In this document: positions 22,747 through 62,991 of the stretch, piece by piece | How positions within the stretch are numbered: the first letter of the stretch is position 1 | Layout: each line of letters begins with the position of its first letter | Source of the DNA: Cerasicoccus maritimus | GTDB lineage: Bacteria > Verrucomicrobiota > Verrucomicrobiia > Opitutales > Cerasicoccaceae | Assembly (NCBI GenBank): GCA_031296935.1 | Contig: JAVDPD010000024.1 | Location: 31,173 to 95,172, forward strand | Direction of reading: 5' to 3' | DNA: 64,000 nt | Made by a program: the position numbers and the translations under genes | The notes under the pieces: generated by a model | Told to the model about the DNA's origin: nothing | Seen by the model: the letters and a program-made list of their open reading frames with translations, nothing else | Database searches by the model: none

Positions 22747-22770
22747 GAAATGTTTACGCGTAAACATTTC
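22747..22770. promoter_or_regulatory. LacI-type operator A1, perfect 24-bp palindrome
   Basis: The sequence is GAAATGTTTACG followed by its exact reverse complement, with the LacI-typical central CG. It lies 42 bp before the lyase ATG (22812) and 33 bp before the divergent ATG at 22714. Its core TTTACGCGTAAA recurs at 24646 and 25875. Confidence 0.85.
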
Positions 22771-24617: not shown

Positions 24618-24645
24618 CAGCCTGAGTGAGCAGCCCGACAGCTGA

Positions 24646-24657
24646 TTTACGCGTAAA
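24646..24657. promoter_or_regulatory. LacI-type operator A2
   Basis: An exact TTTACGCGTAAA palindrome, 125 bp before the start of the PEP-CTERM gene at 24782 and just after the lyase gene. Confidence 0.75.
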
Positions 24658-24781
24658 CAATCGACTATCTTGTGCTAACACAGCCATTTTTCCAATGTAA
24701 CATATATATCCCAATGCTGGCTTCAGTCGAAGCGACCTTGGCCTCAACAACTTCAAACATTCACCCCTAATATCACTAAGT

Positions 24782-25849: not shown

Positions 25850-25874
25850 TTTTTGCGTATTTGGCCTCCTTGCA

Positions 25875-25886
25875 TTTACGCGTAAA
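25875..25886. promoter_or_regulatory. LacI-type operator A3
   Basis: An exact TTTACGCGTAAA, 119 bp before the ATG of the beta-helix protein at 26005 and after the preceding terminator, so it controls that gene separately. Confidence 0.75.
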
Positions 25887-26004
25887 ACACCACCTCGATT
25901 GCGAGCGATGTGCGCATTGCGCATGCTGCATAACGAACCCCTTCGGGCGTGCGTCTTGGTGATGCGATGCTTGAATCACACAAACCCCAACGAAGAAACT
26001 CGTT

Positions 26005-28341
26005 ATGTTTGATCTACCCTTGGCGGCCCGCCAATGCTGTGCGGCGCTGTTGCTCTTGTCTGGCGCTCAACTGTGCGCGACAACTTACTATGTGAAAAAC
26101 GGAGGCGATGATGCGCTGTCCGGCCTCGATGACGCCAATGCCTGGGCGTCCATCACGCGGGTCAATGCGGCCAGCTTGTCGCCCGGCGATACTGTGCTCT
26201 TCAACTCTGGTGATGTGTTTGCGGACGCGACGCTCTTGCCTGACTCAGGCAACGCTAGCAACCCCGTAACCTACAGTGCTTATGGCTCTGGCGTGAAGCC
26301 GGTGCTCACGACCGCGATTGAATTGCCTATATCTGGTTGGACGGATTTGGGTGGTGATGTTTACCAAATCGCGCTGCCTGATGAGACCTGCATGGTCGTG
26401 GGTGACGGTGTGTATTTCCCGCCTGCCAACTCGGTGGCGACCTTGGCAGACGGCACATACTACTGGGACTCCGCTGGCTATCTCTACGTGCAGGATTCCG
26501 CTGGAAGCCCTAACATCTCGGGCAAGGTTTTCCGAGTCGGTCAGCGCGACAACGTCATCAAATTTCAAGGTGAAGACTTCGTGGTGATCGAAGGCCTGCG
26601 CCTGGAAATCGCCAATAATTCACTGTGCATTTTCAACTCCGGGAGCTCGGATAACACGATTTCGAATTGTGAATTTTACTATGCGAGCTCGGATAATGTG
26701 ACGGCTGGCTCGGGCGTTCACGCTTGCAGCGCACCGCGCCTGAAAGTCTACGATAGTCGCTTCAGTTACCTGGAAGGCGATGGTATTTACATGCAGCGCG
26801 CGGACGGCTATGAGGCGATTGGCAACGAGATCGATTATCTCTTCGATGTTGGCGGAGACCCGGGCGGCGACGGTATTCAAATCTCTGGCAAGGCGGGCTA
26901 TGAGAGCAATGACTTCCGCATTAAAAACAACATCGTGCGGCGCGAAACCAAAGTGACGAACAAAGGCTGCATCATCGTCGAGCAAGGTTCCGGTGGTGTG
27001 GTCTCCGGCAACTACGTTTACCAAGGGCGCTTTGGCATCGCGTGCTATTCGAGCAATGTCGTGATTGAATACAATTACTGCGAAGATATCGGCCAATACG
27101 GTGGCATTCGCTTGTGGGAGAATAAAGGCCAGCACGACATCACTATCCGCTACAACATTATCGACCATGCGGACAATGCCGGCATTACGATTGGCAACAC
27201 GGCAAACCCGTCCACGGATATGGCGAACATCATCATCCGCAACAACGTGGTTTATAACTCCTACTATGGCGTCGGGATTTCGGTGCCTGTATCGGGCGAG
27301 TTTAAGAACAACATCGTGTGGGCTCCGCGCTACAACAAACCGAAGTTCCGGTTGAAGGTTACCGGCATCATCGCCGGAGAAACCTTCGAGGCGGACAACA
27401 ATATCTTAGAAGACTCCAACGTGGATGGCACGGAGATCATCGCGAGCTGGCTGGGCACGGATTATACGGACCTCGCATCGTATCGATCTGGCTCCGGGCA
27501 GGGAGCGAATTCCTCGTCCGATGATCCTTTGTGGGTAGACCCGGATAACAATGACTTTGCATTGCAAAGTAACTCGCCGGCCATCGATGCTGGTGAAGAT
27601 CCCGCTACCGCCACGTTGGACTTTTATGGCAACAGCGCGCCGGTTGGCGACGCGATTGACGTCGGCGCCGCGGAGGCTGGCGGGCTCTTCACCTACGAGG
27701 GGTTTGACTACTCAACTGGCACGATCACCACGGCCACGGGTGGCTTTGGCTGGAGCGGTGGTTGGACCTTTGTCGGCGGCGCAGGAGTCACAATGATTCG
27801 CACCAGCACGGATTGGCCACATGCGTTGACCTACACTGATCTGCCGATGGCGGGCAACCGCTTCAACATCTACGACACCGATGGCGTGCACCAGACAGCG
27901 GAACGTTCGCTCGCGCAGACACTCGGCTCCACGACAGGCACGTATTGGTTTTCGGTTCTGGTGCGCAAGCACTCCTCGGGCCGATCGTTCACCATGGATT
28001 TAGATGGCCTGAGCCTGTATTGTGCAGCGGGCGATTGGCAGGTGAAAACGCCCAATGGTAGCTACCAAACATTGACCGGAGCTAGCTATAGCGCGGAGCA
28101 TTTCTTCGTCATTCGCGTCGATCCGGGCGCGAGTGTGGACACAGTTTACGTGTGGGTGGATCCGGTCTTATCGGCTGGTGAGCCCTCCACTGCGAGCGCT
28201 GATCTCACTCTGACGGATACGCCGTTTACGATCGACAGCATCTTGCTGAAGCAGGGCCCCTGGGGTAACGGGTTTCAAAGCACCTCAATCGACGAGCTGC
28301 ATTTCTCTAACACCTTTGCCGGTGTGATTCAGGTGCCTTAG
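26005..28341 (+). CDS. Secreted right-handed parallel beta-helix protein with C-terminal LamG-like domain
   Basis: 778 residues. Signal peptide at residues 1-25 (ending GAQLCA), then the PL-type entry TYYVKNGGDDALSGLD and repeated coils such as IKNNIVRRE, VVIEYNYCEDIG, ITIRYNIIDHADNAGITIGN and IIIRNNVVYN, the ladder of a parallel beta-helix as in pectate lyase, alginate lyase PL6 and related proteins. From about residue 570 a jelly-roll-like domain follows (YEGFDYSTGTI, SFTMDLDGLSLY, FTIDSILLKQGPWG). No exact lyase family can be called. It is likely a lyase or hydrolase acting on the same polymer as the lyase at 22812. Its stop overlaps the stop of the convergent LacI gene. Confidence 0.85.
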   Translation: MFDLPLAARQCCAALLLLSGAQLCATTYYVKNGGDDALSGLDDANAWASITRVNAASLSPGDTVLFNSGDVFADATLLPDSGNASNPVTYSAYGSGVKPVLTTAIELPISGWTDLGGDVYQIALPDETCMVVGDGVYFPPANSVATLADGTYYWDSAGYLYVQDSAGSPNISGKVFRVGQRDNVIKFQGEDFVVIEGLRLEIANNSLCIFNSGSSDNTISNCEFYYASSDNVTAGSGVHACSAPRLKVYDSRFSYLEGDGIYMQRADGYEAIGNEIDYLFDVGGDPGGDGIQISGKAGYESNDFRIKNNIVRRETKVTNKGCIIVEQGSGGVVSGNYVYQGRFGIACYSSNVVIEYNYCEDIGQYGGIRLWENKGQHDITIRYNIIDHADNAGITIGNTANPSTDMANIIIRNNVVYNSYYGVGISVPVSGEFKNNIVWAPRYNKPKFRLKVTGIIAGETFEADNNILEDSNVDGTEIIASWLGTDYTDLASYRSGSGQGANSSSDDPLWVDPDNNDFALQSNSPAIDAGEDPATATLDFYGNSAPVGDAIDVGAAEAGGLFTYEGFDYSTGTITTATGGFGWSGGWTFVGGAGVTMIRTSTDWPHALTYTDLPMAGNRFNIYDTDGVHQTAERSLAQTLGSTTGTYWFSVLVRKHSSGRSFTMDLDGLSLYCAAGDWQVKTPNGSYQTLTGASYSAEHFFVIRVDPGASVDTVYVWVDPVLSAGEPSTASADLTLTDTPFTIDSILLKQGPWGNGFQSTSIDELHFSNTFAGVIQVP

Positions 28342-29456
28342 CTTTTGGCGGTAGTCGCTTTCTTTCGAGCCTGTCGCTTTGTTTTGGCGGCGGGCTTTTT
28401 CTTGTCCGCTTTGGGGGCGTTGGAGCGAATGGATTGCCCGTCGGTCCAATTACCTTCGGTAAGGACGATTTTAGGTGTGGTGGGGAGGCCTTTTTCGTTG
28501 CGTTGTAATTGGCCAACAATCAAGTCCACCACTGCAGCGCCAACGGCCTCATCCTGTTGGTTGATGCCAGCGATGGCAGTTCCGTTATCTCCCTTGCTGA
28601 GCGAAATGAAGCCGATGTCTTCCGGCACACGTTTGTCGAAAAGCTCCGGCAGCCAGTCGTAAACCTCGCGGTAAGGGCTGATGACAACGTCGGGCTTATG
28701 CTTGGTCAACCAGGCTCCGAGGTCGCGCTCGATGGGTGTGTTTTTCGGCACGTAATGAATCGGCACGACATGCTTTTTCGCAATGAAGTGCTGCCATGCC
28801 AGATAGGCGGCCATCCAGGAGTGATTCACACGGGAGTCCGTCTCGGCATTGATCACAAAGCCAATGCGCTGGTAGTCGGCCTGCTCGCATTTTTGCAACG
28901 CAGTCGCCATGGCGTCGGGCAGATTGGCTGCGGTGCGATGCAGCTTGGGCTGGGTGAAACTGTAGCCAATGGTAGCTGTGGCAAATTCTTCCCAGCGCAA
29001 GTCGAGCTCGGTGTCGGTGTTGGGGGTAGGGGGGATGATGACGCCATTGATACCGCGAGCCTGAAGTACGTCGCTGAGGCGTGCGCCGCCCATACCTTGG
29101 GAAAATGCCCACATTGGCTCGATGCGGTAGCCCAGCTCTTTGCCGCGGAGCAAGGCGCCCTTGAAGTAGGCGACGGAGACTGGGTGCTCTTCCCAGCCGT
29201 GCTCGGTTTCGAAGGTGGTGATCCAGGAAATGACGGAATGCATTTCCACTGGGCGGGTGGCGCGCAGGTTGGCCATGAGCGTTTGCACCTGCGGGTTGGG
29301 GCGGTAGTGCATGGCCTCGGCGATTTCGAGGATCATTTTGCGCTTGGCTTCGGATACACGTGGGCTGCCGCGCAAGGCCAGCGAAACCGCCATCTTGGAA
29401 ACGCCGGCTTTGGCGGCTACCTCAGCCATTGTTGGGGTCTTGGCGGCACTTTCCAT
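28338..29456 (-). CDS. LacI-family transcription regulator of locus A
   Basis: I chose ATG 29456 (372 residues); a TTG at 29495 and a GTG at 29468 are possible. The N-terminal helix-turn-helix reads MAEVAAKAGVSKMAVSLALR, and the hinge region follows (YRPNPQVQTLMANLRATR). The periplasmic-binding-protein-like sensor domain runs to about residue 335 (VISPYREVYDWLP, GFISLSKGD, AGINQQDEAVGAAVVDLIVG). A basic Lys/Ala-rich tail of about 30 residues (KKKPAAKTKRQARKKATTA) is not typical of LacI. It lies 68 bp after the symporter gene on the same strand, most likely in one operon with it. It is the best candidate to bind TTTACGCGTAAA. Confidence 0.9.
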   Translation of the reverse strand: MESAAKTPTMAEVAAKAGVSKMAVSLALRGSPRVSEAKRKMILEIAEAMHYRPNPQVQTLMANLRATRPVEMHSVISWITTFETEHGWEEHPVSVAYFKGALLRGKELGYRIEPMWAFSQGMGGARLSDVLQARGINGVIIPPTPNTDTELDLRWEEFATATIGYSFTQPKLHRTAANLPDAMATALQKCEQADYQRIGFVINAETDSRVNHSWMAAYLAWQHFIAKKHVVPIHYVPKNTPIERDLGAWLTKHKPDVVISPYREVYDWLPELFDKRVPEDIGFISLSKGDNGTAIAGINQQDEAVGAAVVDLIVGQLQRNEKGLPTTPKIVLTEGNWTDGQSIRSNAPKADKKKPAAKTKRQARKKATTAKS

Positions 29457-29524
29457 CAGCGCCTTCACATTGAGTCTCTGGTGGTTGGCTGTCAACTGGT
29501 CTTACGAGGGTGAAGCATGAGCGC

Positions 29525-31410: not shown

Positions 31411-31429
31411 TCAGCAAGTGGCTCGCGAG

Positions 31430-31441
31430 TTTACCCGTAAA
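31430..31441. promoter_or_regulatory. LacI-type operator A5
   Basis: TTTACCCGTAAA, one base different from A1-A3, 112 bp before the symporter ATG. With A4 it may allow looping or cooperative binding in front of the symporter-LacI operon. Confidence 0.65.
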
Positions 31442-31646
31442 CGAATGCTTCAGGCGTAAGACATGTCCTATAGTCTACGTGTGAGGTAAAACGGATTTTT
31501 TATTGCAATGGAATTGCAGTATTGGATTGTTCAAACCTGCACTACGGCTTGAGATGTCAGGACCATAATAGTGAATGGATATTCTCTTGACGGAAGGATT
31601 TGATCAGTAACCATTGCAGAGGTATTTTACTCGAAAAGAGTCGAGC

Positions 31647-47731: not shown

Positions 47732-48352
47732 TTACGCGGATTGCTTGCTTTTGCGTATCCGGCGCACCCAGAGAATTCCGGCCAGGCTGCAAAAGCCGAT
47801 CATCGTAATAATCTGCGCGGGTTCCGGCACTGGGGCGACGGGAGGCGCTGTCCCAATCAAGACATTAACCGAGTCAGCGCCCCAAATCCAGCTGTAGGTC
47901 CCCGGGGTGGCCATGAGGCTGGCAATGCTTTGCCCGGCATAGACTTTGCTAAAATTCAGCACGTAGGGGGCCGCGTTGTAGCCTGCCGGCACGCCCACGT
48001 AGGGCGTAAAACCACCGCCATCATCTCCTTGAACAAAGAAGGTGTCTCCCACGGCTCCGAGGCCTGATACTGAGCCGCCGCCAGCACCGAAGTTTGCCGG
48101 GTAGGAAATGAAGTTGCTGTAGAAATCAAAGTTAGCTCCGGGGGCAATGTTGACCACATTTGGGCCACCGGTGGCGATGAAGTCGCCGCTGTAGCTGTTT
48201 AAAGTGCCCCCAAAGGTCAGGCCTGTTAAGTCGAGCTGACCGGTCGCGGTAACGCCCAAGTTTGGCCCTGTGTCATAAACGTAGATCGTTAAGGCTGCTT
48301 GAGCCGTTGAAACGAGGGATAGTAGTATAATTGGAATAATATGCTTTTTCAT
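47732..48352 (-). CDS. PEP-CTERM sorting domain protein
   Basis: 206 residues, ATG 48352. Signal peptide MKKHIIPIILLSLVSTAQAA. The body (GQLDLTGLTFGGTLNSYSGD, NIAPGANFDFY) is a small secreted beta-rich domain, and the end is VPEPAQIITMIG, a hydrophobic helix, and an unusually long basic tail (RRIRKSKQSA). Monocistronic with a strong terminator. Surface location by family; function unknown. Confidence 0.85.
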   Translation of the reverse strand: MKKHIIPIILLSLVSTAQAALTIYVYDTGPNLGVTATGQLDLTGLTFGGTLNSYSGDFIATGGPNVVNIAPGANFDFYSNFISYPANFGAGGGSVSGLGAVGDTFFVQGDDGGGFTPYVGVPAGYNAAPYVLNFSKVYAGQSIASLMATPGTYSWIWGADSVNVLIGTAPPVAPVPEPAQIITMIGFCSLAGILWVRRIRKSKQSA

Positions 48353-54009: not shown

Positions 54010-57000
54010 TTACTGTGCTTCGAGTGTTGGGCCATTTCCGCTTTCGTGAGAGGAGAACTCGATCATTCGATCGGTATTTGAAGGCTGCACGAGTATGAAG
54101 CTAGCGGTGCCATCTCCAGAGGCTTCAGTCGTGACGTAGCTGGTGACATCAAGAGAGACTTCATTGCCAATGTCGGCACTTTCGACACTGAAGGATTGGA
54201 TGAGTGATCCAGCGCTGGGCTGATTATTCCAGTTGATGCCGCCTTCAGTCCAGCTGTCATCGGACAATGTGCGAAGCTCGACATTGAAGTTATCCGTGCC
54301 TTCCGTTCCCAGAGCAGCCAGGTGTAAAACGAGATCTACGCTGGTGCTGCCCGCCAGGGACGACACGGGGAACTGGATAAAGCTATGTCGGGTATAGCCG
54401 GTTACGTTGACGGATTTGACAACCAGCCCATTTGATTGGCCGTAGTTTGTCGCGGCGTAGGTGCCGTTGCGCGTGTAGGAATCCGCAGTGGACTCAACGA
54501 CAACGAGGCCAGTGTCTTCGTATAGGCGGATGTCTTTGTAAACAACGTTTGTGCTGCCGTTTGCATCATCATCGGCAGTCAGCACCAGCCAGTTCATTGC
54601 GCCCGTATAGAAGGTGCCGACCTCGATAACGTAGGTGGCGTCTCCTGAGCCATTAACGTATGTGGGGCTGATCGGCCAACCGTCCGGCCAGTTTTGGCTG
54701 CCGCCGACTTGGAATACGCGCTTATCGTTGAGCATGACGTTATCTTCATCCAAGCCCATGCCGATGATTTCTCCGGAGTCCGTCGCACTCACGGTGAATT
54801 CCAGAACGGTATCGGGGGTTACCGTGTAGCTGACCGGAAATTTCTTCCAGTTATTGCCAGTCAAGGTAATCCAGTAACCGCTGCTTTCAATGCTGGTCGT
54901 TCCGCTCAGATCCTGATCAGCATAGCTTTCGTAATCGGTTTCTCCGAGCGTGACATAGCCATCACCGTCAATGCTGGTGACTGCGGGGACATCGGTGTCC
55001 TCATAGACGCGTATGTTACTAAACACGACATCGGTTGTGGCGTTGGCGTCATCATCAGCTGCCAGCACCAGCCAAAGCATGGAGCCGGTATAGTAAGAGC
55101 CGACGGCGATGCTGTAGGTTGCCTGTCCCGAACCATTGACATAGCTCGGTGTAATCGCCCAACCGTCCGGCCAGTTTTGGCTACCGCCAACCTGGAAAAC
55201 GCGCTGGGCATTGAGCATGTCGTCATCTTCGTCCAGACCGACGCCAATGATCTCACCAGAGTCCGTCGCCTCGACCGTAAACTCAAGAATCGTATTGGCC
55301 GTTACCGTATAATTAAGCGGGAATTTCTTCCAGTTATTGCCGGTGAGTGAAATGGACGCACCACCGGCCGCAACTGTCGTTGTGCCAGAGATGTCCTGAT
55401 TATCATAGCCAGAGTAATCACTGTCGCCCATTGACACATTGCCATTGCCGTCAATCGAAGTCGTGGTGGAGCCTCCACCTCCTGTGACCGAAATGGTAAT
55501 GGAGTTCTCGGTCGTTGCGCCATCGTCATCAGTGGCCACGGCTTTCAATGTGTAACTACCGCTGCCAAGCCCTAAAAGAGCGCTGTCGGTTTCTGGGCTG
55601 GCCGTACCCCATTCGTAAGGAGCAATGGTTTCCGTGCGCACTAAAACGTTGTCAAGATACAGCGCCACACTGGTAACGGTTCCGTCGGTATCGCTGGCGT
55701 TGACTACTGGACCGAGGTCTGCGGGGGCGGTGATAGATGCGCCGTTACTCGGGCTGGCGAAGCTAACTACTGGTGCCTGATTCGTTGGCCCACCAGTCAC
55801 GGTGATGGAGATTGACTCTTCAGTGGTTGCGCCATCGTCATCAGTGGCTACGGCTTTCAATGTGTAACTGCCGCTGCCAAGCCCTAATAGCGCGCTATCG
55901 GTTTCTGGGCTGGCCGTACCCCATTCGTAAGGAGCAATGGTTTCCGTGCGCACCAAAACGTCGTCAAGATAAAGCGCCACACTGGTAACGGTTCCGTCGG
56001 TATCGCTGGCGTTGACTACTGGACCGAGGTCTGCGGGGGCGGCGATAGATGCGCCGTTAATCGGGCTGGCGAAGCTAACTACTGGTGCCTGATTCGTTGG
56101 CCCACCAGTTACGGTGATGGAGATTGACTCTTCAGTGGTTGCGCCATCGTCATCAGTCGCCACAGCTTTCAATGTGTAACTGCCGCTGGCTAAGCCCAGA
56201 AGCGCTGCATCCGTTTCGAGCGAATTGGCCGTGCCCCATTCATACGGCGAGACGTTTTCCGTGCGCACCAAAACGTCGTCAAGATACAGCGATACATTGG
56301 CAATGGTTCCATCTGAATCAGTTGCAGTCACCACAGGGCCGAGGTCCGCGGGAGCGGCAAAAGAGGCACCGTTGCTGGGGGTGCTGAAGGCAACAGAAGG
56401 TGCCTGGTTGCTGGGACCACCGCCGCCTCCGGCGACACTCAGCATTGCGCTCTGTCCTGCATACTGACCGGTGGGTAGGTTAAAGGTCAGGGTTTCATTG
56501 ATGTCGCCGGAAAGCGTAATTGTCGCAGTGTTATCCGTTTGTTCGGGATTAGAGCACCATACTTTCACCGGGTTCGAAGATTCGTCGATCATTACGATCA
56601 TCTTGGAATCACACTGGACGCTTAGTCCGGTACGAACCTGAATCGTGCCCGCTTGGTAAAACACTACCCCCGAAACCCCGAGGCCGTTGTGGCGCACGGC
56701 CTGCTGGTTTCCATTATTGGCAATGATGGTTATTGGCAGATTATTCGAATAGCTTTGCGTTTCCGATTTCGACATTCCGGGAGTCAAGATATACTCGTAA
56801 CTGCCGGCAGCGGGTCGCACGCCGTGGTCAAACCAAAGGCTAAAGACATCCTTGCTAATCGTTGCACTGGATTCCGTATTCTTAATTTCGTACCAAGAAC
56901 CACTCTGTGTGTTGTTCCGCAGAGTTACATTTGAATTACTGGGAAAGACATACCCGACGTTGTCGTGGTGCACCCACTTCGGATTGGAAAGTGTGGTAGC

Positions 57001-58659
57001 GCCCGTGGAACCCGTATAAGTTCCAGACCCAGTTCCATACTCCACATAGACCGAGCCGTCAGTGAGGCATTGGTTGATTGAAGTGTAGAGTGGAGCGCTT
57101 GAGATGCTAGTTATGTTGTTGCCTAGGCAAACGACTTCGTCATCAAAGCAGAACCAGGCTTTTTTGCCTTCGGTGTAATCCCAGTTCATGTTGTATGCGG
57201 CAACACCGTACTCACCATCAGATACACCACCTACAAAGTCTGTCGTGCCGGGGTTATACATCCAATCGTTAGGCTTGGGGGCGGGATCCAAATGTCTTGA
57301 GGTAGTGCCTGGAATTCGGCCCCAGTCCCAGACCGGATAGATCTCATCATACTCGAGTCCGCTTTGAGTGATCCAGGTCATGCCTTGGGACAAGTATTTC
57401 CCCTGAAGGTTTTCACCATTGCCCGCCTCATGCGAAAAAGTCCGACGCGACACTAGTTTGATGCCAACCATGTAGTCGCTGCGGCGGTGTGAATGGTAAT
57501 CTCCTCTCCAAAAATGCTTATTGCCCACCAGCGAATCATCGTCATTGCCGTTGAGGTGATTCTTAAACGCCTGAAATTCTGCCGCACGGGGATAGCCTCC
57601 AGCGATCATGCGGTCACATACTTTAATCATCCTTGCGGCGCTACTTTTGGGATCTCCGGGGCGTCCAAGAGCACGGCCAGCAGAGGCATTGTCAAACACA
57701 CCATTGCGAATCATCCACTGCGTTCCATCTAGGAACAAGCTGGAAAACAGCGTGGACTTTGCGGGATCTATGCCAAAAGACAAACCTCCGCTAGCGCCAA
57801 GCCAAAAGCTGACGTCCTCCTGGAAGCCAGTGCCGTAACCCCAGTTCTGTAGCATTCGGCCGTGTTGGAAGAACGAGAAGTCCTCGATGATGCCATCCTG
57901 AAGAACGCCACCGGTATCGCCATTTCCTTGTCGCGCCAGGTATTCCGTATTGTCATTAAATTTGATTTCATTGCCAATGGCAGTGAACGCCTGACTAAGC
58001 GCAGTAGGATTCTCATAAGCCTCTAGGCTGCTAATGCAGACATGTATCCCAGCCAACCACATGAGATTCTGTCCAGTAGCTGGACTGCTATGGTAGTAAT
58101 AACCAGAGGCAGAAATGCTGTCATAGCCGGTTTCCCATTCGCCATAACAGTAATCATAGCCCTGGCTCAATTGGCTGCTCGTAATCTCGCCCTCAACCAG
58201 GACAAGGATATGTGCCATGATTTCGGGACCACCAATCACATTGTTCCAGCTGTTCAGATTGTTTACCGGGTGGGCTGAATACCAGTAATCGAGTCCATCA
58301 CGAATCGCATTACGCATAGTCGTGCTATTGGTGTAGCCAGACCCGCTTTTTCGATAGGCAACAGCCATTTGCCTGAGGCGCGCCAGGTGATCACTTGGTT
58401 CCCAAGCCGTCTGAGCCTGATGGTTGTAATCGATATCAGACCAACTGCCATTGATATTCTGTGAATTAAGGTAACTTCCAGCGCCAGCATAATCTGTGTT
58501 ATCTCTTAGCTCATTGAATATACGACCGCGTAGCGTATCGACTTCATCTGCCTGCAACGATTGGGCGATAGAAAGGAGAAGAAAACAAGTTAAGGTGCGG
58601 TAAAGACACTGTCGGAGGTGGATGGGTATCTTAGCTAATGTAATATTTATTGTGTTCAT
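54010..58659 (-). CDS. Large secreted polysaccharide lyase, PL8-like, with Ig-like and binding modules
   Basis: 1549 residues with a signal peptide (residues 1-37, ending LQADE). The PL8 fold fills about residues 40-770: NSWNNVIGGPEIMAHILVLV holds the Asn site, DFSFFQHGRMLQNWGYGTGF holds the catalytic-type His (near 265) and Tyr, and ASAGRALGRPGD the Arg. PL8 enzymes cut hyaluronan, chondroitin or xanthan. Three Ig-like repeats (about 104 residues each, 738-1050) follow, then two copies of a 160-residue module (TSIDGNGNVSMGD type) and a C-terminal DNRLRE-like domain from about 1385. It is in locus B with operator B1 191 bp upstream. There is no PEP-CTERM or other anchor signal. Confidence 0.85.
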   Translation of the reverse strand: MNTINITLAKIPIHLRQCLYRTLTCFLLLSIAQSLQADEVDTLRGRIFNELRDNTDYAGAGSYLNSQNINGSWSDIDYNHQAQTAWEPSDHLARLRQMAVAYRKSGSGYTNSTTMRNAIRDGLDYWYSAHPVNNLNSWNNVIGGPEIMAHILVLVEGEITSSQLSQGYDYCYGEWETGYDSISASGYYYHSSPATGQNLMWLAGIHVCISSLEAYENPTALSQAFTAIGNEIKFNDNTEYLARQGNGDTGGVLQDGIIEDFSFFQHGRMLQNWGYGTGFQEDVSFWLGASGGLSFGIDPAKSTLFSSLFLDGTQWMIRNGVFDNASAGRALGRPGDPKSSAARMIKVCDRMIAGGYPRAAEFQAFKNHLNGNDDDSLVGNKHFWRGDYHSHRRSDYMVGIKLVSRRTFSHEAGNGENLQGKYLSQGMTWITQSGLEYDEIYPVWDWGRIPGTTSRHLDPAPKPNDWMYNPGTTDFVGGVSDGEYGVAAYNMNWDYTEGKKAWFCFDDEVVCLGNNITSISSAPLYTSINQCLTDGSVYVEYGTGSGTYTGSTGATTLSNPKWVHHDNVGYVFPSNSNVTLRNNTQSGSWYEIKNTESSATISKDVFSLWFDHGVRPAAGSYEYILTPGMSKSETQSYSNNLPITIIANNGNQQAVRHNGLGVSGVVFYQAGTIQVRTGLSVQCDSKMIVMIDESSNPVKVWCSNPEQTDNTATITLSGDINETLTFNLPTGQYAGQSAMLSVAGGGGGPSNQAPSVAFSTPSNGASFAAPADLGPVVTATDSDGTIANVSLYLDDVLVRTENVSPYEWGTANSLETDAALLGLASGSYTLKAVATDDDGATTEESISITVTGGPTNQAPVVSFASPINGASIAAPADLGPVVNASDTDGTVTSVALYLDDVLVRTETIAPYEWGTASPETDSALLGLGSGSYTLKAVATDDDGATTEESISITVTGGPTNQAPVVSFASPSNGASITAPADLGPVVNASDTDGTVTSVALYLDNVLVRTETIAPYEWGTASPETDSALLGLGSGSYTLKAVATDDDGATTENSITISVTGGGGSTTTSIDGNGNVSMGDSDYSGYDNQDISGTTTVAAGGASISLTGNNWKKFPLNYTVTANTILEFTVEATDSGEIIGVGLDEDDDMLNAQRVFQVGGSQNWPDGWAITPSYVNGSGQATYSIAVGSYYTGSMLWLVLAADDDANATTDVVFSNIRVYEDTDVPAVTSIDGDGYVTLGETDYESYADQDLSGTTSIESSGYWITLTGNNWKKFPVSYTVTPDTVLEFTVSATDSGEIIGMGLDEDNVMLNDKRVFQVGGSQNWPDGWPISPTYVNGSGDATYVIEVGTFYTGAMNWLVLTADDDANGSTNVVYKDIRLYEDTGLVVVESTADSYTRNGTYAATNYGQSNGLVVKSVNVTGYTRHSFIQFPVSSLAGSTSVDLVLHLAALGTEGTDNFNVELRTLSDDSWTEGGINWNNQPSAGSLIQSFSVESADIGNEVSLDVTSYVTTEASGDGTASFILVQPSNTDRMIEFSSHESGNGPTLEAQ
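55514..56420. repeat. Three tandem 312-bp repeats inside the PL8-like gene
   Basis: The same words recur every 312 bp (55514, 55826, 56138), each coding one Ig-like domain with TLKAVATDDDGATTE. The first two are nearly identical at the DNA level; the third (56138 onward) is more diverged. This points to recent duplication of one domain and makes the region prone to expansion or contraction. Confidence 0.85.
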
Positions 58660-58849: not shown

Positions 58850-58863
58850 TGTTAGTCATAACA
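58850..58863. promoter_or_regulatory. LacI-type operator B1
   Basis: TGTTAGTCATAACA, 191 bp upstream of the PL8-like ATG. On the other strand it reads TGTTATGACTAACA. Confidence 0.7.
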
Positions 58864-58885
58864 TCATGCATCATTCTGATAGAAA

Positions 58886-58916
58886 AACTGGCCGTCTCTT
58901 ATCGAGACGGCCAGTT
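58886..58916 (-). terminator. Terminator of the PEP-CTERM gene in locus B
   Basis: A perfect 13-bp stem (AACTGGCCGTCTC / GAGACGGCCAGTT) with a 5-base loop, followed on the minus strand by TTTC. Confidence 0.9.
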
Positions 58917-58960
58917 GGTGAGGAGCGACGAGATATTGGCGGCAGGCGCCGTATCCAGAT

Positions 58961-59719
58961 TTAAATTCGGCTCCGGCGCAGGAGGAGGACACAAGTTCCA
59001 AGCAGACCAATCAACAGCGCATACGATCTTGGTTCGGGTATTGTTGTGGGATTGGTCAAATTTTGGCCGGTGGTGTCGATGTAAATGTCATCAATGTAAT
59101 CATTACCACCGCCGTGGGCGTTTACCACGAGCAGAGTCACCAATCCGCTGGTAGTGCCATTGCGGAAGGCGCCGCTTCCGATAGCCGAGGTGGCGTCATC
59201 GCTGCCCGTGGTAACATAAAGCGTCGTGGTGTCGTTGGTGTTGTCTAGCTCTAGCCATACGTTATACCAAGTATCGGCGGCACCATTCTCAAGGTCTCCG
59301 GTGAATCCGCCTCCATCTCGCAGTTGGAATCCGTAGTCTGCGTCTGCAATGCGGCCATAGCCTTCATAGTCGCCAAATGAATTGAAATTTCCAGTAACGT
59401 TAGGGGAAGCCACATCCGAAGAGCCCCACACAAAATTGGGTGCCGCCGCGTCGCTACGTATCCGGAAAAACAGCGTGCCTGTGGTGTTGTTATCGATGCT
59501 CGTGATACTATGGAAGGCTGCAGTGACGTTGCCGGAACTGACGGGCGATGTGTCGATTAAGTATACGTTATTGGAGGCGTTGGTCGGATCTGCGACAATA
59601 GAGCCCTGAGAGCCGGCGCCCCAGTTGTTCCCGTTTTCCATGTCATCCACCAGCACGAAGGCGCCTTGGCACAAGCAGGTGGACAGGGATAGAGTTAAGA
59701 TGAGTGGAGGTATCTTCAT
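58961..59719 (-). CDS. PEP-CTERM protein with lectin-like fold
   Basis: 252 residues. Signal peptide ends near QGAF. The body (FVLVDDMENGNNWGAG, LFFRIRSDAAAPNFVWGSSD, WYNVWLELDNTNDTTTLYVT) follows the concanavalin/LamG-like beta-sandwich common among carbohydrate-binding PEP-CTERM proteins. The C-terminus is IPEPRSYALLIG, a hydrophobic helix and RRSRI. Operator B2 lies 71 bp upstream and a strong terminator follows, so it is a separately controlled member of regulon B. A surface carbohydrate-binding role is plausible. Confidence 0.85.
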   Translation of the reverse strand: MKIPPLILTLSLSTCLCQGAFVLVDDMENGNNWGAGSQGSIVADPTNASNNVYLIDTSPVSSGNVTAAFHSITSIDNNTTGTLFFRIRSDAAAPNFVWGSSDVASPNVTGNFNSFGDYEGYGRIADADYGFQLRDGGGFTGDLENGAADTWYNVWLELDNTNDTTTLYVTTGSDDATSAIGSGAFRNGTTSGLVTLLVVNAHGGGNDYIDDIYIDTTGQNLTNPTTIPEPRSYALLIGLLGTCVLLLRRSRI

Positions 59720-59789
59720 GGTTGTTTTGGAGTTATGGGTGAGATGGCAATGTATATTCTTGAGTGATCGGCACTCAATTTCCCTGAAA

Positions 59790-59803
59790 TGTTAGACATA
59801 ACA
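59790..59803. promoter_or_regulatory. LacI-type operator B2
   Basis: TGTTAGACATAACA, 71 bp upstream of the PEP-CTERM ATG. On the other strand it reads TGTTATGTCTAACA. About 310 bp without a visible gene separate it from B3. Confidence 0.75.
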
Positions 59804-60113
59804 CCGTGGCGCTTTATGATCGGCTACCGCTATGATTTCTCTGCGTAAAGCGGATTGTTGCGTAGGCTTTCAATCGTTCATGCGCTCGGTGTGCGGGCTT
59901 GCGAACAAAGATAAAAAACTGGGTGCTGCGATTAATTCTCGTATGGGACGAGATTGCTCAACTATTGAAAGGCATGTGGCATAACCCCTTCAAGGCGAGG
60001 CGCTTTGGAGAGGTAACTTAAAGTGTCTTACGAGAGAGGCACTTTTCACAGGTGAATGTAGTTTCGAGATTTTTGGGTTGCATCGTTAGGAGGGGAGGCA
60101 GAGATTCGCGCTG

Positions 60114-60127
60114 TGTTAGGCATAACA
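60114..60127. promoter_or_regulatory. LacI-type operator B3 in front of the LacI gene
   Basis: TGTTAGGCATAACA ends 11 bp before the ATG 60139 and overlaps the place where a ribosome site would be. This suggests autoregulation. On the other strand it reads TGTTATGCCTAACA. Confidence 0.8.
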
Positions 60128-60138
60128 CGAATGCCCCG

Positions 60139-61143
60139 ATGGTTAGTTATAAAGACATTGCTCGCGAAGCTGGTGTTTCGGAGATGACGGTTTCTCGTGT
60201 TTTCCGCAACGAGGCAAAAGTAAGATCTGAAACTCGTCAGAAGGTTATGGCTGCGGCTGAGAAGCTCGGTTATCGGCGCAACCCCCTGGTGGATACACTC
60301 ATGAGGCAGGTCAGAAATAAGCGTGTCCTCACGGACGTTCACCATCTTGCATGGGTTTATCCTGAGCCCGGAAATACCTCTCGAACAGTCTTCGCGCAAT
60401 ATCTGACGGGAGCCCAGCAACGCGCCAAAGAACTTGGCTTTAGCATTGATGTTTTTACCCTCGGTGAGATGCCGCCGAAAAGGCTGAGAGATATATTACT
60501 TGCGCGGGGGATATCAGGTATCCTTCTGGGGCCAACTTATAATGATGTAATTGATTTGGGTTTTGATTTTACGGGATTTGCAGCAGTGACATTTGGCTAT
60601 TCTATACGCTCACCGAATCTGAACAGAATTACTTCACATCATACGAAAAATCAGTTCATGCTTTTGAACCGATTGCGTGATATGGGGTTCCGTGACATTA
60701 TCTATGCGTCGCCATATTGGCATGAAGAACGCATCAATTTTGGTTGGTTGGCATCGACTCTGGCCTTTGCTAAAAAGCATGAGCGTGACATGCGCGTACG
60801 TTGTATGATTCTAGATGAGCTAAAGGATTTGCTCGCCTGTACGCCTAAGGCTCACCTACCCCAAGTCGTGATCTGTGATCGCTTGAAAATCGATGAGTTG
60901 ACCGTACCGTATGGCTTACGTGTTCCTGATGACTTCAGTTATGTCACGCCGACCGTGGAATTGACGACGAAGCTGGGAGTTGAGGTCGCCGGCATTGATC
61001 AATGTTCAAAAAAAATTGGTGCCCGTGCAGTAGAATTTTTGACCGAATTGCTAGCGATGAATCGTTTTGGAGTGCCAGAGAATCCTTCAGCAATTTTAGT
61101 TGAAGGAACTTGGCGAGAAGGTGAGACGCTTAGGTTGCGCTAA
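60139..61143 (+). CDS. LacI-family transcription regulator of locus B
   Basis: 334 residues from ATG 60139 (MVSYKDIAREAGVSEMTVSR); the GTG at 60052 is an unlikely start because operator B3 lies between. The helix-turn-helix is followed by a hinge (YRRNPLVDTLMRQVRNKR) and a sugar-sensing domain (GISGILLGPTYNDVIDLGFD, VVICDRLKIDELTVPYGLRV, VEVAGIDQCSKKIGARAVEF). It differs from the locus A regulator, with which it shares the hinge style NP-x-V-x-T-L-M. It is the best candidate to bind TGTTATGNYTAACA, found four times around it. Confidence 0.92.
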   Translation: MVSYKDIAREAGVSEMTVSRVFRNEAKVRSETRQKVMAAAEKLGYRRNPLVDTLMRQVRNKRVLTDVHHLAWVYPEPGNTSRTVFAQYLTGAQQRAKELGFSIDVFTLGEMPPKRLRDILLARGISGILLGPTYNDVIDLGFDFTGFAAVTFGYSIRSPNLNRITSHHTKNQFMLLNRLRDMGFRDIIYASPYWHEERINFGWLASTLAFAKKHERDMRVRCMILDELKDLLACTPKAHLPQVVICDRLKIDELTVPYGLRVPDDFSYVTPTVELTTKLGVEVAGIDQCSKKIGARAVEFLTELLAMNRFGVPENPSAILVEGTWREGETLRLR

Positions 61144-61191
61144 ATCTCATCGATAGCGTTCGGGTAAATCCCTTTTGTTACCTAGCAGGGA

Positions 61192-61205
61192 TGTTATGTT
61201 TAACA
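61192..61205. promoter_or_regulatory. LacI-type operator B4
   Basis: TGTTATGTTTAACA, 63 bp upstream of the DUF3147 start. This copy is in the opposite orientation to B1-B3 and fits TGTTATGNYTAACA directly. Confidence 0.7.
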
Positions 61206-61267: not shown

Positions 61268-61621
61268 ATGAATGTGATTATTAAATATGCAATAACTGCT
61301 TTCATAGTAGTTTTAGTTTCAGAAATTGCCAAGCGTGCAGATCGTATTGGTGCGTTAATAGCATCCCTACCTATCGTAACTATCCTGACGATGATATGGC
61401 TGCATTTAGAGAATCAGCACACCGACAAAATTGCCAATCACGCCTATTACACCTTTTGGTATGTGCTGCCAACTTTGCCAATGTTTTTACTGATTCCCTG
61501 GCTTTTAAAAAACGGGATACGATTTGAGATATCTATAGGTCTAAGTGCAGTTTTTACTGCTTTTGTGTTTTTAGTAACATCATTGATGTTAAAGCGAATC
61601 GGTGTGGATTTATTACCATAG
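61268..61621 (+). CDS. DUF3147-type small membrane protein
   Basis: 117 residues from ATG 61268 (MNVIIKYAITAFIVVLVSE); an upstream start at 61175 is less likely. Four membrane helices, with EIAKRADRIGALIASLPIVT and IANHAYYTFWYVLPTLPMFL, as in the DUF3147 family, whose function is not known. It lies between the LacI gene and the GH30 gene, with 47 bp to the latter, and follows operator B4, so it is probably co-transcribed with GH30. Confidence 0.8.
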   Translation: MNVIIKYAITAFIVVLVSEIAKRADRIGALIASLPIVTILTMIWLHLENQHTDKIANHAYYTFWYVLPTLPMFLLIPWLLKNGIRFEISIGLSAVFTAFVFLVTSLMLKRIGVDLLP

Positions 61622-61668: not shown

Positions 61669-62991
61669 ATGCTATCATTTACTACTTCTCCCACTGGTAC
61701 ATGGGAAGCTAATCGTGTAAAAGAGGTTCCTGCCAAGAAAAGCCTTCAGTTGAATGTATCCAAGCAGTCAGCGCATCCGGTTCTTGGATTTGGTGGCTGT
61801 TTCAATGAGCTTGGTGCACGTGGATTATTCGCCCTCTCTGAAGAGAAAAAAAACGAAGCTCTTCAGGCGATATTCGGTGACGACGGTTGCCGATTTTCTT
61901 TTTGTCGCGTCCCAATTGGTGCAAGCGATTATAGCATAGAATGGTATAGTCACAATGACACTTTTGGCGATTATGAAATGAAGCATTTCTCTATCGCTCA
62001 TGACTACCGTTTTCTGATTCCATATATTAGGGAAGCCTTGAGCATACGACCTGACCTGAAGTTATTTGCTTCCCCATGGAGTCCACCGATTTGGCTAAAG
62101 GAAAAATGTCGATATAATGGAAGCCGCTTACGCCAAGAGTCTCGTGTATTCGAAGCATTAGCTGAGTATTTTCTGCGGTTTGTGACTGCTTACCGGCAAG
62201 AGGGTATCGAAATAAATCAGGTTCATGTTCAAAATGAACCTCGATCTAGCCAGAATTTTCCTTCATGTATTTGGACGGGAATCGAGATGCGAAATTTTAT
62301 TCGCGACTATTTGGGGCCTAGATTTGAAGCCGCGCGTGAAACTTGCGAAATTTGGGCTGGTACGATTGAGAAAGGTATTTTGCTCGGGTGGGCTCCGGAG
62401 GATTTCAAGAACCAGACTTATCATGAATGGGCGCATGTAATACTCAGTGATCCGCATGCTCGGAAATATATACACGGCATCGGCTATCAGTGGTGTGGTA
62501 AAGGTGCGCTTCAGCAAACGAGAGCCAATTGGCCTGAGGTCCCTATCATTCAAACAGAGAATGAATGTGGTGATGGAAAGAACACTTGGGACTATGCATT
62601 TTATACCTTCGACCTAATGTGGCACTACTTTGCAAATTTTGCGTCTGCATATGTCTACTGGAATATGCTACTGCCGCCAGGTGGTGAAAGTACTTGGGGC
62701 TGGCCGCAAAATACGTTAATCACCATTGATGAGAAAAGAGATGTGATTATCTACAATCCTGAGTATTGGATTATGAAGCACGTCAGTCACTTCGTTGAGC
62801 CTGGCGCTACAGTCTACTCGCTAACCGGAGATGGAGCTGCACTGAGTCTGCTGTTTAAGAATTCAAATGGTCAATGGGTTTTTATCCTTTCCAATCCACT
62901 TTACGAGCGCGTCGAAATATCTCTAGCCCTGGATAATGACTTGAAAGGATTGTGTTTTCCACCTCGTTCTATCTCTACGCTAGTCATCTGA
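61669..62991 (+). CDS. Glycoside hydrolase family 30 enzyme
   Basis: 440 residues, ATG 61669. GH30 pattern: HPVLGFGGCFNELGARGLFA, FSFCRVPIGASDYS, LKLFASPWSPPIWLK, the acid/base Glu in HVQNEPRSSQNFPS and the nucleophile Glu in IIQTENECGDGKN, then SAYVYWNMLLPPGGESTWGW. GH30 members hydrolyse beta-glucosides, beta-1,6-glucans, fucosides or xylans. There is no signal peptide, so it probably works in the cytoplasm on imported oligosaccharides. It sits at the end of the operator B4 unit in locus B. The exact substrate is unknown. Confidence 0.88.
   Translation: MLSFTTSPTGTWEANRVKEVPAKKSLQLNVSKQSAHPVLGFGGCFNELGARGLFALSEEKKNEALQAIFGDDGCRFSFCRVPIGASDYSIEWYSHNDTFGDYEMKHFSIAHDYRFLIPYIREALSIRPDLKLFASPWSPPIWLKEKCRYNGSRLRQESRVFEALAEYFLRFVTAYRQEGIEINQVHVQNEPRSSQNFPSCIWTGIEMRNFIRDYLGPRFEAARETCEIWAGTIEKGILLGWAPEDFKNQTYHEWAHVILSDPHARKYIHGIGYQWCGKGALQQTRANWPEVPIIQTENECGDGKNTWDYAFYTFDLMWHYFANFASAYVYWNMLLPPGGESTWGWPQNTLITIDEKRDVIIYNPEYWIMKHVSHFVEPGATVYSLTGDGAALSLLFKNSNGQWVFILSNPLYERVEISLALDNDLKGLCFPPRSISTLVI

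What the first reader, a model, noticed from the sequence alone, without database searches (positions are those of the whole stretch)
58850..61205. Regulon B: four copies of TGTTATGNYTAACA around a second LacI gene
Sites at 58850, 59790, 60114 and 61192 all fit one 14-bp consensus with conserved TGTTATG and TAACA halves, and each precedes a different transcription unit (PL8-like lyase, PEP-CTERM protein, LacI itself, DUF3147-GH30). The site 11 bp before the LacI ATG suggests negative autoregulation. The consensus is unrelated to that of regulon A, so the two loci are controlled independently.
Basis: partly seen in the sequence, partly recalled or inferred. Interest (0 to 1): 0.75.

Follow-up and report, generated by a model that had tools for sequence, protein, structure and literature searches.

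The report
LacI repressor with four matching operators
A LacI-type gene switch sits among four copies of one DNA sign placed before its own gene and before neighbouring polysaccharide-degrading genes, so it probably turns this small gene set on and off; the sign lacks the usual CG middle, which seems to go with a changed hinge in the protein.

Summary
Observation confirmed. TGTTATGNYTAACA occurs exactly at 58850, 59790, 60114 and 61192; these are its only exact copies in the 4.81-Mb genome, and of 371 other order genomes 11 have one copy and none two. The LacI at 60139 has no ortholog in the genomes searched (best 37% identity), so site conservation at orthologous genes could not be tested. 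I tested the recognition helix instead. Among 189 distinct LacI ORFs, those with Met16 and Arg20 (here EM-TVSR) carry GTTA-N3/4-TAAC upstream of their own gene in 15 of 28 cases, others in 2 of 161 (15 of 27 and 2 of 156 after cleaning). This ties sites to regulator and supports autoregulation. Most likely: a local LacI repressor of a PL8 lyase gene, a PEP-CTERM gene, itself and a membrane protein-GH30 unit. New variant: the operators lack the usual central CG and keep a TG beside one arm. Regulators with a similar Val/Ile51-Met55 hinge often share this; three Ala-hinged ones with the same arms have central CG (3 of 4 sites; TG in the fourth). A broader held-out test of the hinge idea was not significant. 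No binding data exist.

The parts
58850..58863 (-). Operator 1, TGTTATGACTAACA, 190 bp upstream of the PL8 lyase ATG
   Evidence: exact; only four in genome
59790..59803 (-). Operator 2, TGTTATGTCTAACA, 70 bp upstream of the PEP-CTERM protein ATG
60114..60127 (-). Operator 3, TGTTATGCCTAACA (on -), 11 bp upstream of the LacI ATG; proposed autoregulatory site
   Evidence: sites upstream of lacI in 15 of 28 Met16/Arg20 LacI
61192..61205 (+). Operator 4, TGTTATGTTTAACA, 62 bp upstream of ATG 61268
60139..61143 (+). LacI-family regulator, 334 aa; recognition helix EM-TVSR; hinge NPLVDTLM (Val51, Leu54, Met55)
54010..58659 (-). PL8 polysaccharide lyase, 1549 aa, with three Big_7 and one CBM96 domain; nearest solved relative chondroitinase AC
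58961..59719 (-). Small protein with a PEP-CTERM-like tail (sub-threshold match to the PEP-CTERM models)
58886..58916 (-). Terminator-like hairpin after the PEP-CTERM gene and before the PL8 operator
61268..61621 (+). Small membrane protein, PRK09272/DUF3147-like
61669..62991 (+). GH30 glycoside hydrolase, 47 bp after the membrane protein gene, probably the same unit

Best explanation
The LacI at 60139 is a local, autoregulated repressor. Its dimer binds the four TGTTA-TGNY-TAACA sites, each GTTA arm read by the recognition helix of one subunit (Met16 and Arg20 the main determinants). Without inducer it represses the PL8 lyase gene, the PEP-CTERM gene, lacI itself and the membrane protein-GH30 unit; an unknown breakdown product of the substrate of PL8/GH30 releases it. 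Shown: the sites, their confinement to the locus, and the statistical link between Met16/Arg20 and GTTA/TAAC arms upstream of lacI genes. Inferred: binding, repression rather than activation, and the inducer. Less certain (about 0.5): because hinge residue 51 is Val instead of the family's Ala while Leu54 is kept, the DNA kink is made at the TG step beside one arm and not at a central CG.
For: Four exact sites, only here in the genome and in no other of 372 order genomes more than once. Highest score of 101 LacI loci in a search for palindromes before lacI that recur in the locus; none of 1,010 shuffled loci reached 6, this locus has 8. GTTA-N3/4-TAAC within 250 bp upstream of lacI: 15 of 28 with Met16/Arg20, 2 of 161 others, Fisher p 7e-13; by 50%-identity clusters 6 of 11 against 2 of 91, p 9e-6; without this LacI 14 of 27; eleven other orderings of the arm letters give at most 2 of 28. 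Cleaned of doubtful ORFs: 15 of 27 against 2 of 156. Published mutual-information work ties residues 15, 16 and 20 to these arm positions, Arg20 to G at -6 (PMC2978694). 72% of 1303 studied LacI regulators are autoregulated (PMC4052901).
Against: No ortholog of the LacI was found (only up to 5 candidates per genome were scored in 11 and 16), so no phylogenetic footprint. A GH30 homolog (49% identity, G054) and five PL8 homologs lack a GTTA-N3/4-TAAC site in their fetched flanks, except one in L350 that seems to lie inside the coding region. 13 of 28 Met16/Arg20 LacI have no such site upstream. No -35/-10 promoter could be placed at the sites beyond chance. Site 1 is 190 bp from its start codon. 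The ligand domain gave no Pfam match.
Confidence: 0.85

Rival explanations
1. Another regulator, encoded elsewhere, binds the four sites, and lacI is only one of its targets.
For: Binding was not tested; the family has 21 to 53 LacI-like matches per genome, so other candidates exist.
Against: The exact sites cluster around this one lacI, and GTTA/TAAC arms go with Met16/Arg20 helices. In the own genome the other such LacI found are L211, L213 (no such site in the fetched DNA) and L216 (a CG-centred site by its own gene).
Confidence: 0.08
2. The LacI binds these sites but mainly activates, or only some of the sites work (site 1 is far from its gene, site 3 lies against the start codon).
For: Distances differ widely, 11 to 190 bp; Ravcheev et al. 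place over 75% of sites 30 to 140 bp upstream (PMC4052901).
Against: All four copies keep both arms without a change; most LacI-family regulators studied are repressors released by ligand (PMC4052901).
Confidence: 0.06
3. The off-centre TG has nothing to do with the hinge: it reflects overlap with a promoter -10 element, since TGTTATG resembles an extended -10 (TGnTAT, recalled) in the direction of PL8, the PEP-CTERM gene and the membrane protein gene. This rivals only the hinge part.
For: Three of four sites run with transcription in that sense. The broader held-out hinge test was not significant.
Against: The lacI site runs the other way. Off-centre YG recurs in other Val/Ile-Met-hinged LacI in both orientations and in regulon A with different arms.
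Confidence: 0.3
4. The four sites are copies of a mobile or dispersed repeat, not operators.
For: The genome has a dispersed inverted-repeat element whose ends read TGTTATCTCTA, two mismatches from the consensus in several places.
Against: The four sites are alike over only about 14 to 18 bp and have no exact copy outside the locus; the dispersed element is longer and different.
Confidence: 0.01

Closest known systems
Local autoregulated LacI-family regulons of sugar use (Ravcheev et al. 2014, PMC4052901; passages read)
   Same: Even palindromic operators near the regulator gene, autoregulation, a handful of carbohydrate genes.
   Different: There 1173 of 1303 regulators have a consensus central CG (49 another pair, 29 degenerate); here the centre is GN with a constant TG beside one arm. 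The word Verrucomicrobia does not occur in that paper's held main text.
CcpA-like TVSR group with the recognition code of Camas et al. 2010 (PMC2978694; outline and two of three parts of Results read)
   Same: TVSR helix with Arg20 and G at -6; arms set mainly by residues 15 and 16. Their Table S1 was not available, so I do not know whether EM or Met16 is listed with TT.
   Different: Hinge Ala51 is Val here, and the central CG which they link to Ala51 and Leu54 is absent.
EbgR-like LacI regulators (Francke et al. 2008, PMC2329647; passages read)
   Same: Changed hinge residues go with loss of the central CG.
   Different: They lack both the Ala and the Leu, have an insertion before helix 3 and a single central C or G; here Leu54 is kept and the spacing is even with an off-centre YG.

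Membership tests
LacI-family transcription factor | N-terminal LacI-type helix-turn-helix | tested here: met
   Pfam LacI E 3.5e-18, 65.6 bits, cutoff 27
LacI-family transcription factor | C-terminal periplasmic-binding-protein-like ligand domain | tested here: inconclusive
   334 aa with full-length alignment to other LacI proteins of the lineage at 31-37% identity; no ligand-domain Pfam family at E up to 5; structure not predicted
LacI-family transcription factor | Palindromic operator next to the regulator gene | tested here: met
   comparative link
LacI-family transcription factor | Ligand-controlled DNA binding | not testable with these tools
   needs binding tests
CcpA-like operator class (central CG, hinge Ala51 and Leu54) | Central CG step in the operator | tested here: not met
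   Central steps of the four sites are GA, GT, GC, GT as read on the consensus strand
CcpA-like operator class (central CG, hinge Ala51 and Leu54) | Hinge Ala51 and Leu54 | tested here: not met
   Leu54 present, position 51 is Val
EbgR-like LacI subgroup | Hinge Ala and Leu both absent; operator with single central C or G | tested here: not met
   Leu54 present; even 14-bp operator
Chondroitinase AC (PL8) | Curated NCBIfam chondroitinase-AC score and catalytic residues | tested here: not met
   406.6 bits against a cutoff of 1000; the His, Tyr and two Arg that I recall as catalytic in chondroitinase AC align to the same residues; the Asn was outside the printed alignment. PL8 membership is met, the substrate is open.

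The most novel reading that the evidence does not exclude
LacI regulators of this lineage with a Pro49, Val/Ile51, Leu54, Met55 hinge form a subfamily with its own operator grammar: arms set by residues 16 and 20 (Met16+Arg20 gives GTTA; Met16+Leu20 gives TTTA) and a YpG step beside one arm in place of the central CpG, so that the dimer kinks DNA off-centre. With such rules operators could be read from the protein sequence for the many LacI paralogs that accompany polysaccharide genes in these bacteria.
Probability: 0.45. Interest if true: 0.6.

Novelty: new variant of a known kind. Interest (0 to 1): 0.45.

Why it matters
Genomes of this family hold 21 to 53 LacI-like matches each (10 genomes), and the library search for 'Verrucomicrobi', 'LacI family' and 'operator' together returned 0 papers (open-licence papers only). 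A link from recognition-helix residues to operator arms that works without orthologs lets one predict which polysaccharide genes each paralog controls. The off-centre YpG, if bound as proposed, is a natural test of how hinge residues choose the DNA kink: the same genome holds a LacI with Met16/Arg20 and an Ala hinge (L216) whose GTTA/TAAC site has a central CG.

Tried and rejected
A first statistic for repeated palindromes was wrong: its expectation left out two-mismatch matches, and its null equalled the data. I discarded it and redid the scan with shuffles of 3-base blocks (these keep 3-mers, not all dinucleotides).

The general idea that all Val/Ile-Met-hinged LacI use an off-centre YG looked good in the discovery set (7 of 12 upstream palindromes with 5-base arms and gap 4, about 0.23 expected per palindrome by my arithmetic) but was not significant in the held-out set outside the family (5 of 13, against 10 of 40 in coding control; 13 palindromes where the control predicts 10). 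What remains is the narrower set with known arms, which includes the discovery cases L031 and L152.

The Met16+Leu20 prediction (TTTA) is weak on upstream regions alone: 4 of 21, against 3 of 138 without Met16 and 0 of 28 with Met16/Arg20.

The Ala-hinge comparison is small: L216/L312 was first noticed through its CG-centred site, L313 and L314 came from a search with it, and L314 has one CG and one TG centre.

Promoter prediction found 4 against 4.9 by chance. Rfam found nothing in the window. The five one-mismatch sites elsewhere in the genome (L005-L009): one inside a LacI gene, one after another LacI gene (L216's), two within other ORFs (one at its very start), one just upstream of an ORF; I do not count them as members. 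A degenerate copy at 61566 (TGTTTTTAGTAACA, about 90 bp before GH30) is probably chance.

Rows left out: LacI loci were a choice from longer lists (334 matches, printed in part; one search also printed in part). Most matches with in-frame stops were not fetched by me, but L235, L237 and L336 came back as loci with a stop reported. Of 297 loci given to the last count, 42 had no LacI accepted by my helix pattern, 11 ORF hits were dropped by length or position, and genes with the same first 60 residues were merged. Five of the 189 ORFs are doubtful LacI and one real one (L213) has an odd helix; without these six the count is 15 of 27 against 2 of 156. One nested false ORF of L216 stays among the 'others'.

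Full report
Observation. The consensus TGTTATGNYTAACA has four exact matches in the window, at the stated coordinates. The assembly (4.81 Mb) has the same four and no fifth. In a sample of 372 genomes of the order, 11 others have one each and none has two. Chance is excluded. The asymmetric consensus reads on the - strand at 58850, 59790 and 60114 and on the + strand at 61192: with transcription for PL8, the PEP-CTERM gene and the membrane protein gene, against it for lacI.

Genes. The regulator starts at ATG 60139, 11 bp after site 3; its helix-turn-helix is LacI-type, with EM-TVSR in the recognition helix. PL8 (54010-58659, -) is closest to chondroitinase AC among solved structures. The His, Tyr and two Arg that I recall as catalytic there are kept in the alignment, but the curated chondroitinase AC score is not reached, so the substrate is open. 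The protein at 58961-59719 has a PEP-CTERM-like tail (sub-threshold) and ends before a terminator-like hairpin, so PL8 probably has its own unit. The membrane protein gene (ATG 61268) and GH30 lie 47 bp apart and probably form one unit. GH30 resembles glucosylceramidase and endo-1,6-beta-glucanase entries below any curated equivalog score and has no obvious signal peptide by my reading.

Is this LacI the binder? No ortholog was found: best matches are up to 35% identical in 10 family genomes, none of 387 phylum genomes has a match at E 1e-60 apart from the own one, and in 372 order genomes two others pass 1e-54, at 35 and 37%. Searches scored up to 5 candidates per genome. I therefore asked whether other LacI with the same specificity residues use the same arms. 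Camas et al. (PMC2978694) tie residues 15 and 16 to positions -5 and -4 and Arg20 to G at -6. In 189 distinct LacI ORFs from fetched loci, GTTA-N3/4-TAAC starts within 250 bp upstream of lacI in 15 of 28 with Met16 and Arg20 and in 2 of 161 others (Fisher p 7e-13); by clusters of 50% identity 6 of 11 against 2 of 91 (p 9e-6); leaving out the window LacI, 14 of 27; eleven other orderings of the arm letters give at most 2 of 28. After removing six ORFs with odd helices the count is 15 of 27 against 2 of 156. Thirteen of 28 have no such site upstream. A first version on 173 ORFs gave 10 of 18, against 2 of 155 for N4 and 0 of 155 for N3. Because the sites counted lie before lacI itself, this supports both the assignment and autoregulation.

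Strength of the locus. In a scan of 101 LacI loci of the family for a palindrome before lacI that recurs in the locus, this locus scored highest (8). Four loci scored 4 or more against 0.1 expected, sixteen scored 3 or more against 2.8, and none of 1,010 shuffled loci reached 6.

Centre of the operator. Ravcheev et al. (PMC4052901) report a consensus central CG for 1173 of 1303 LacI regulators. Here the central steps are GA, GT, GC and GT, and TG beside one arm is constant. The hinge has Val at 51 and Met at 55, with Leu54 kept. Among Met16/Arg20 LacI with a Val/Ile51-Met55 hinge and GTTA-N4-TAAC sites in their loci, 6 of 9 have CG or TG beside an arm in at least one site and 0 of 9 a central CG; one of the nine (L326) has Trp for Leu54. 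L152 keeps it in 2 of 3 sites; L254, L260 and L326 lack it. Nine other LacI, of the same hinge type but two with Met at 51, have the shorter N3 spacing, 7 of 9 with TG beside an arm. The chance rate for such a step is about a quarter by my arithmetic. Three Ala-hinged LacI with the same arms (L216/L312, L313, L314) have central CG in 3 of 4 sites and TG in one. Seven of the 28 have no GTTA site in the fetched DNA. Regulon A of this window, whose LacI has the same hinge type but Leu20, has CG beside an arm in 4 of 4 sites (TTTACGCGTAAA three times, TTTACCCGTAAA once), and two related KM-VSL loci, L089 and L231, in 4 of 4 more. Two further relatives with nearly the same hinge, L226 and L233, showed no such site in the fetched DNA, which spans about 1.5 kb on each side. 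Against the idea, the pre-set held-out test on the whole hinge class was not significant. I take the off-centre YG as likely for this group and unproven for the class. Francke et al. (PMC2329647) give a precedent: EbgR-like regulators that lack hinge Ala and Leu have no central CG.

Mechanism. Best reading: a dimeric repressor on four operators, released by a product of the substrate that PL8 and GH30 attack. Binding, repression, inducer and the kink at TG are inferences. Site conservation at related target genes could not be shown: a GH30 homolog (G054, 49%) and five PL8 homologs were fetched with 1.5-kb flanks or less, and one GTTA-N4-TAAC occurs, in L350, apparently inside the coding region.

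Literature. No paper in the held library has 'Verrucomicrobi', 'LacI family' and 'operator' together. Broader searches were seen as listings; of the papers they returned I read passages of PMC2329647 alone. Only open-licence papers are held, so absence is not proof.

Noticed in passing
window 22752-22765, 24645-24658, 25874-25887, 31429-31442; LacI ORF 28338-29495 (-): Regulon A: four TTTACGCGTAAA-type sites (TTTACGNNTAAA expected 0.07) around a LacI with KMAVSL helix and the same hinge type; like regulon B they lack a central CG and have CG beside an arm; related loci L089 and L231 carry the same sites.
   Followed up: partly
window 43089, 43763, 44178 (weaker at 47928): Repeated palindrome CTTTGC-N3-GCAAAG-type, three close copies within 1.1 kb; the LacI matches found on this contig are elsewhere, so the binder is unknown.
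   Followed up: no
L012, L016, L024, L027, L030 (own genome): A dispersed inverted-repeat element with ends TAGAGATAACATGAAGTT...AACTTCATGTTATCTCTA and a GTTGAGCAAGTGCTGGAC-type middle, in five of the seven loci looked at; possibly a REP or miniature mobile element.
   Followed up: partly
L088 and L097 (two genomes of the family): LacI with RMTVSL helix and palindromes of the CTTTAT(T/C)GTAAAG type before lacI and twice downstream in both loci: an odd 13-bp operator with YG off-centre.
   Followed up: partly
L104, L118, L154, L160, L174, L207: LacI with a DPxLxxLxxY-type hinge often have candidate operators with a central CA/TG step; not all sites fit, and the set was not tested on held-out data with success.
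   Followed up: partly
window 55500-56400: Near-identical tandem Ig-like (Big_7) repeats inside the PL8 protein.
   Followed up: no
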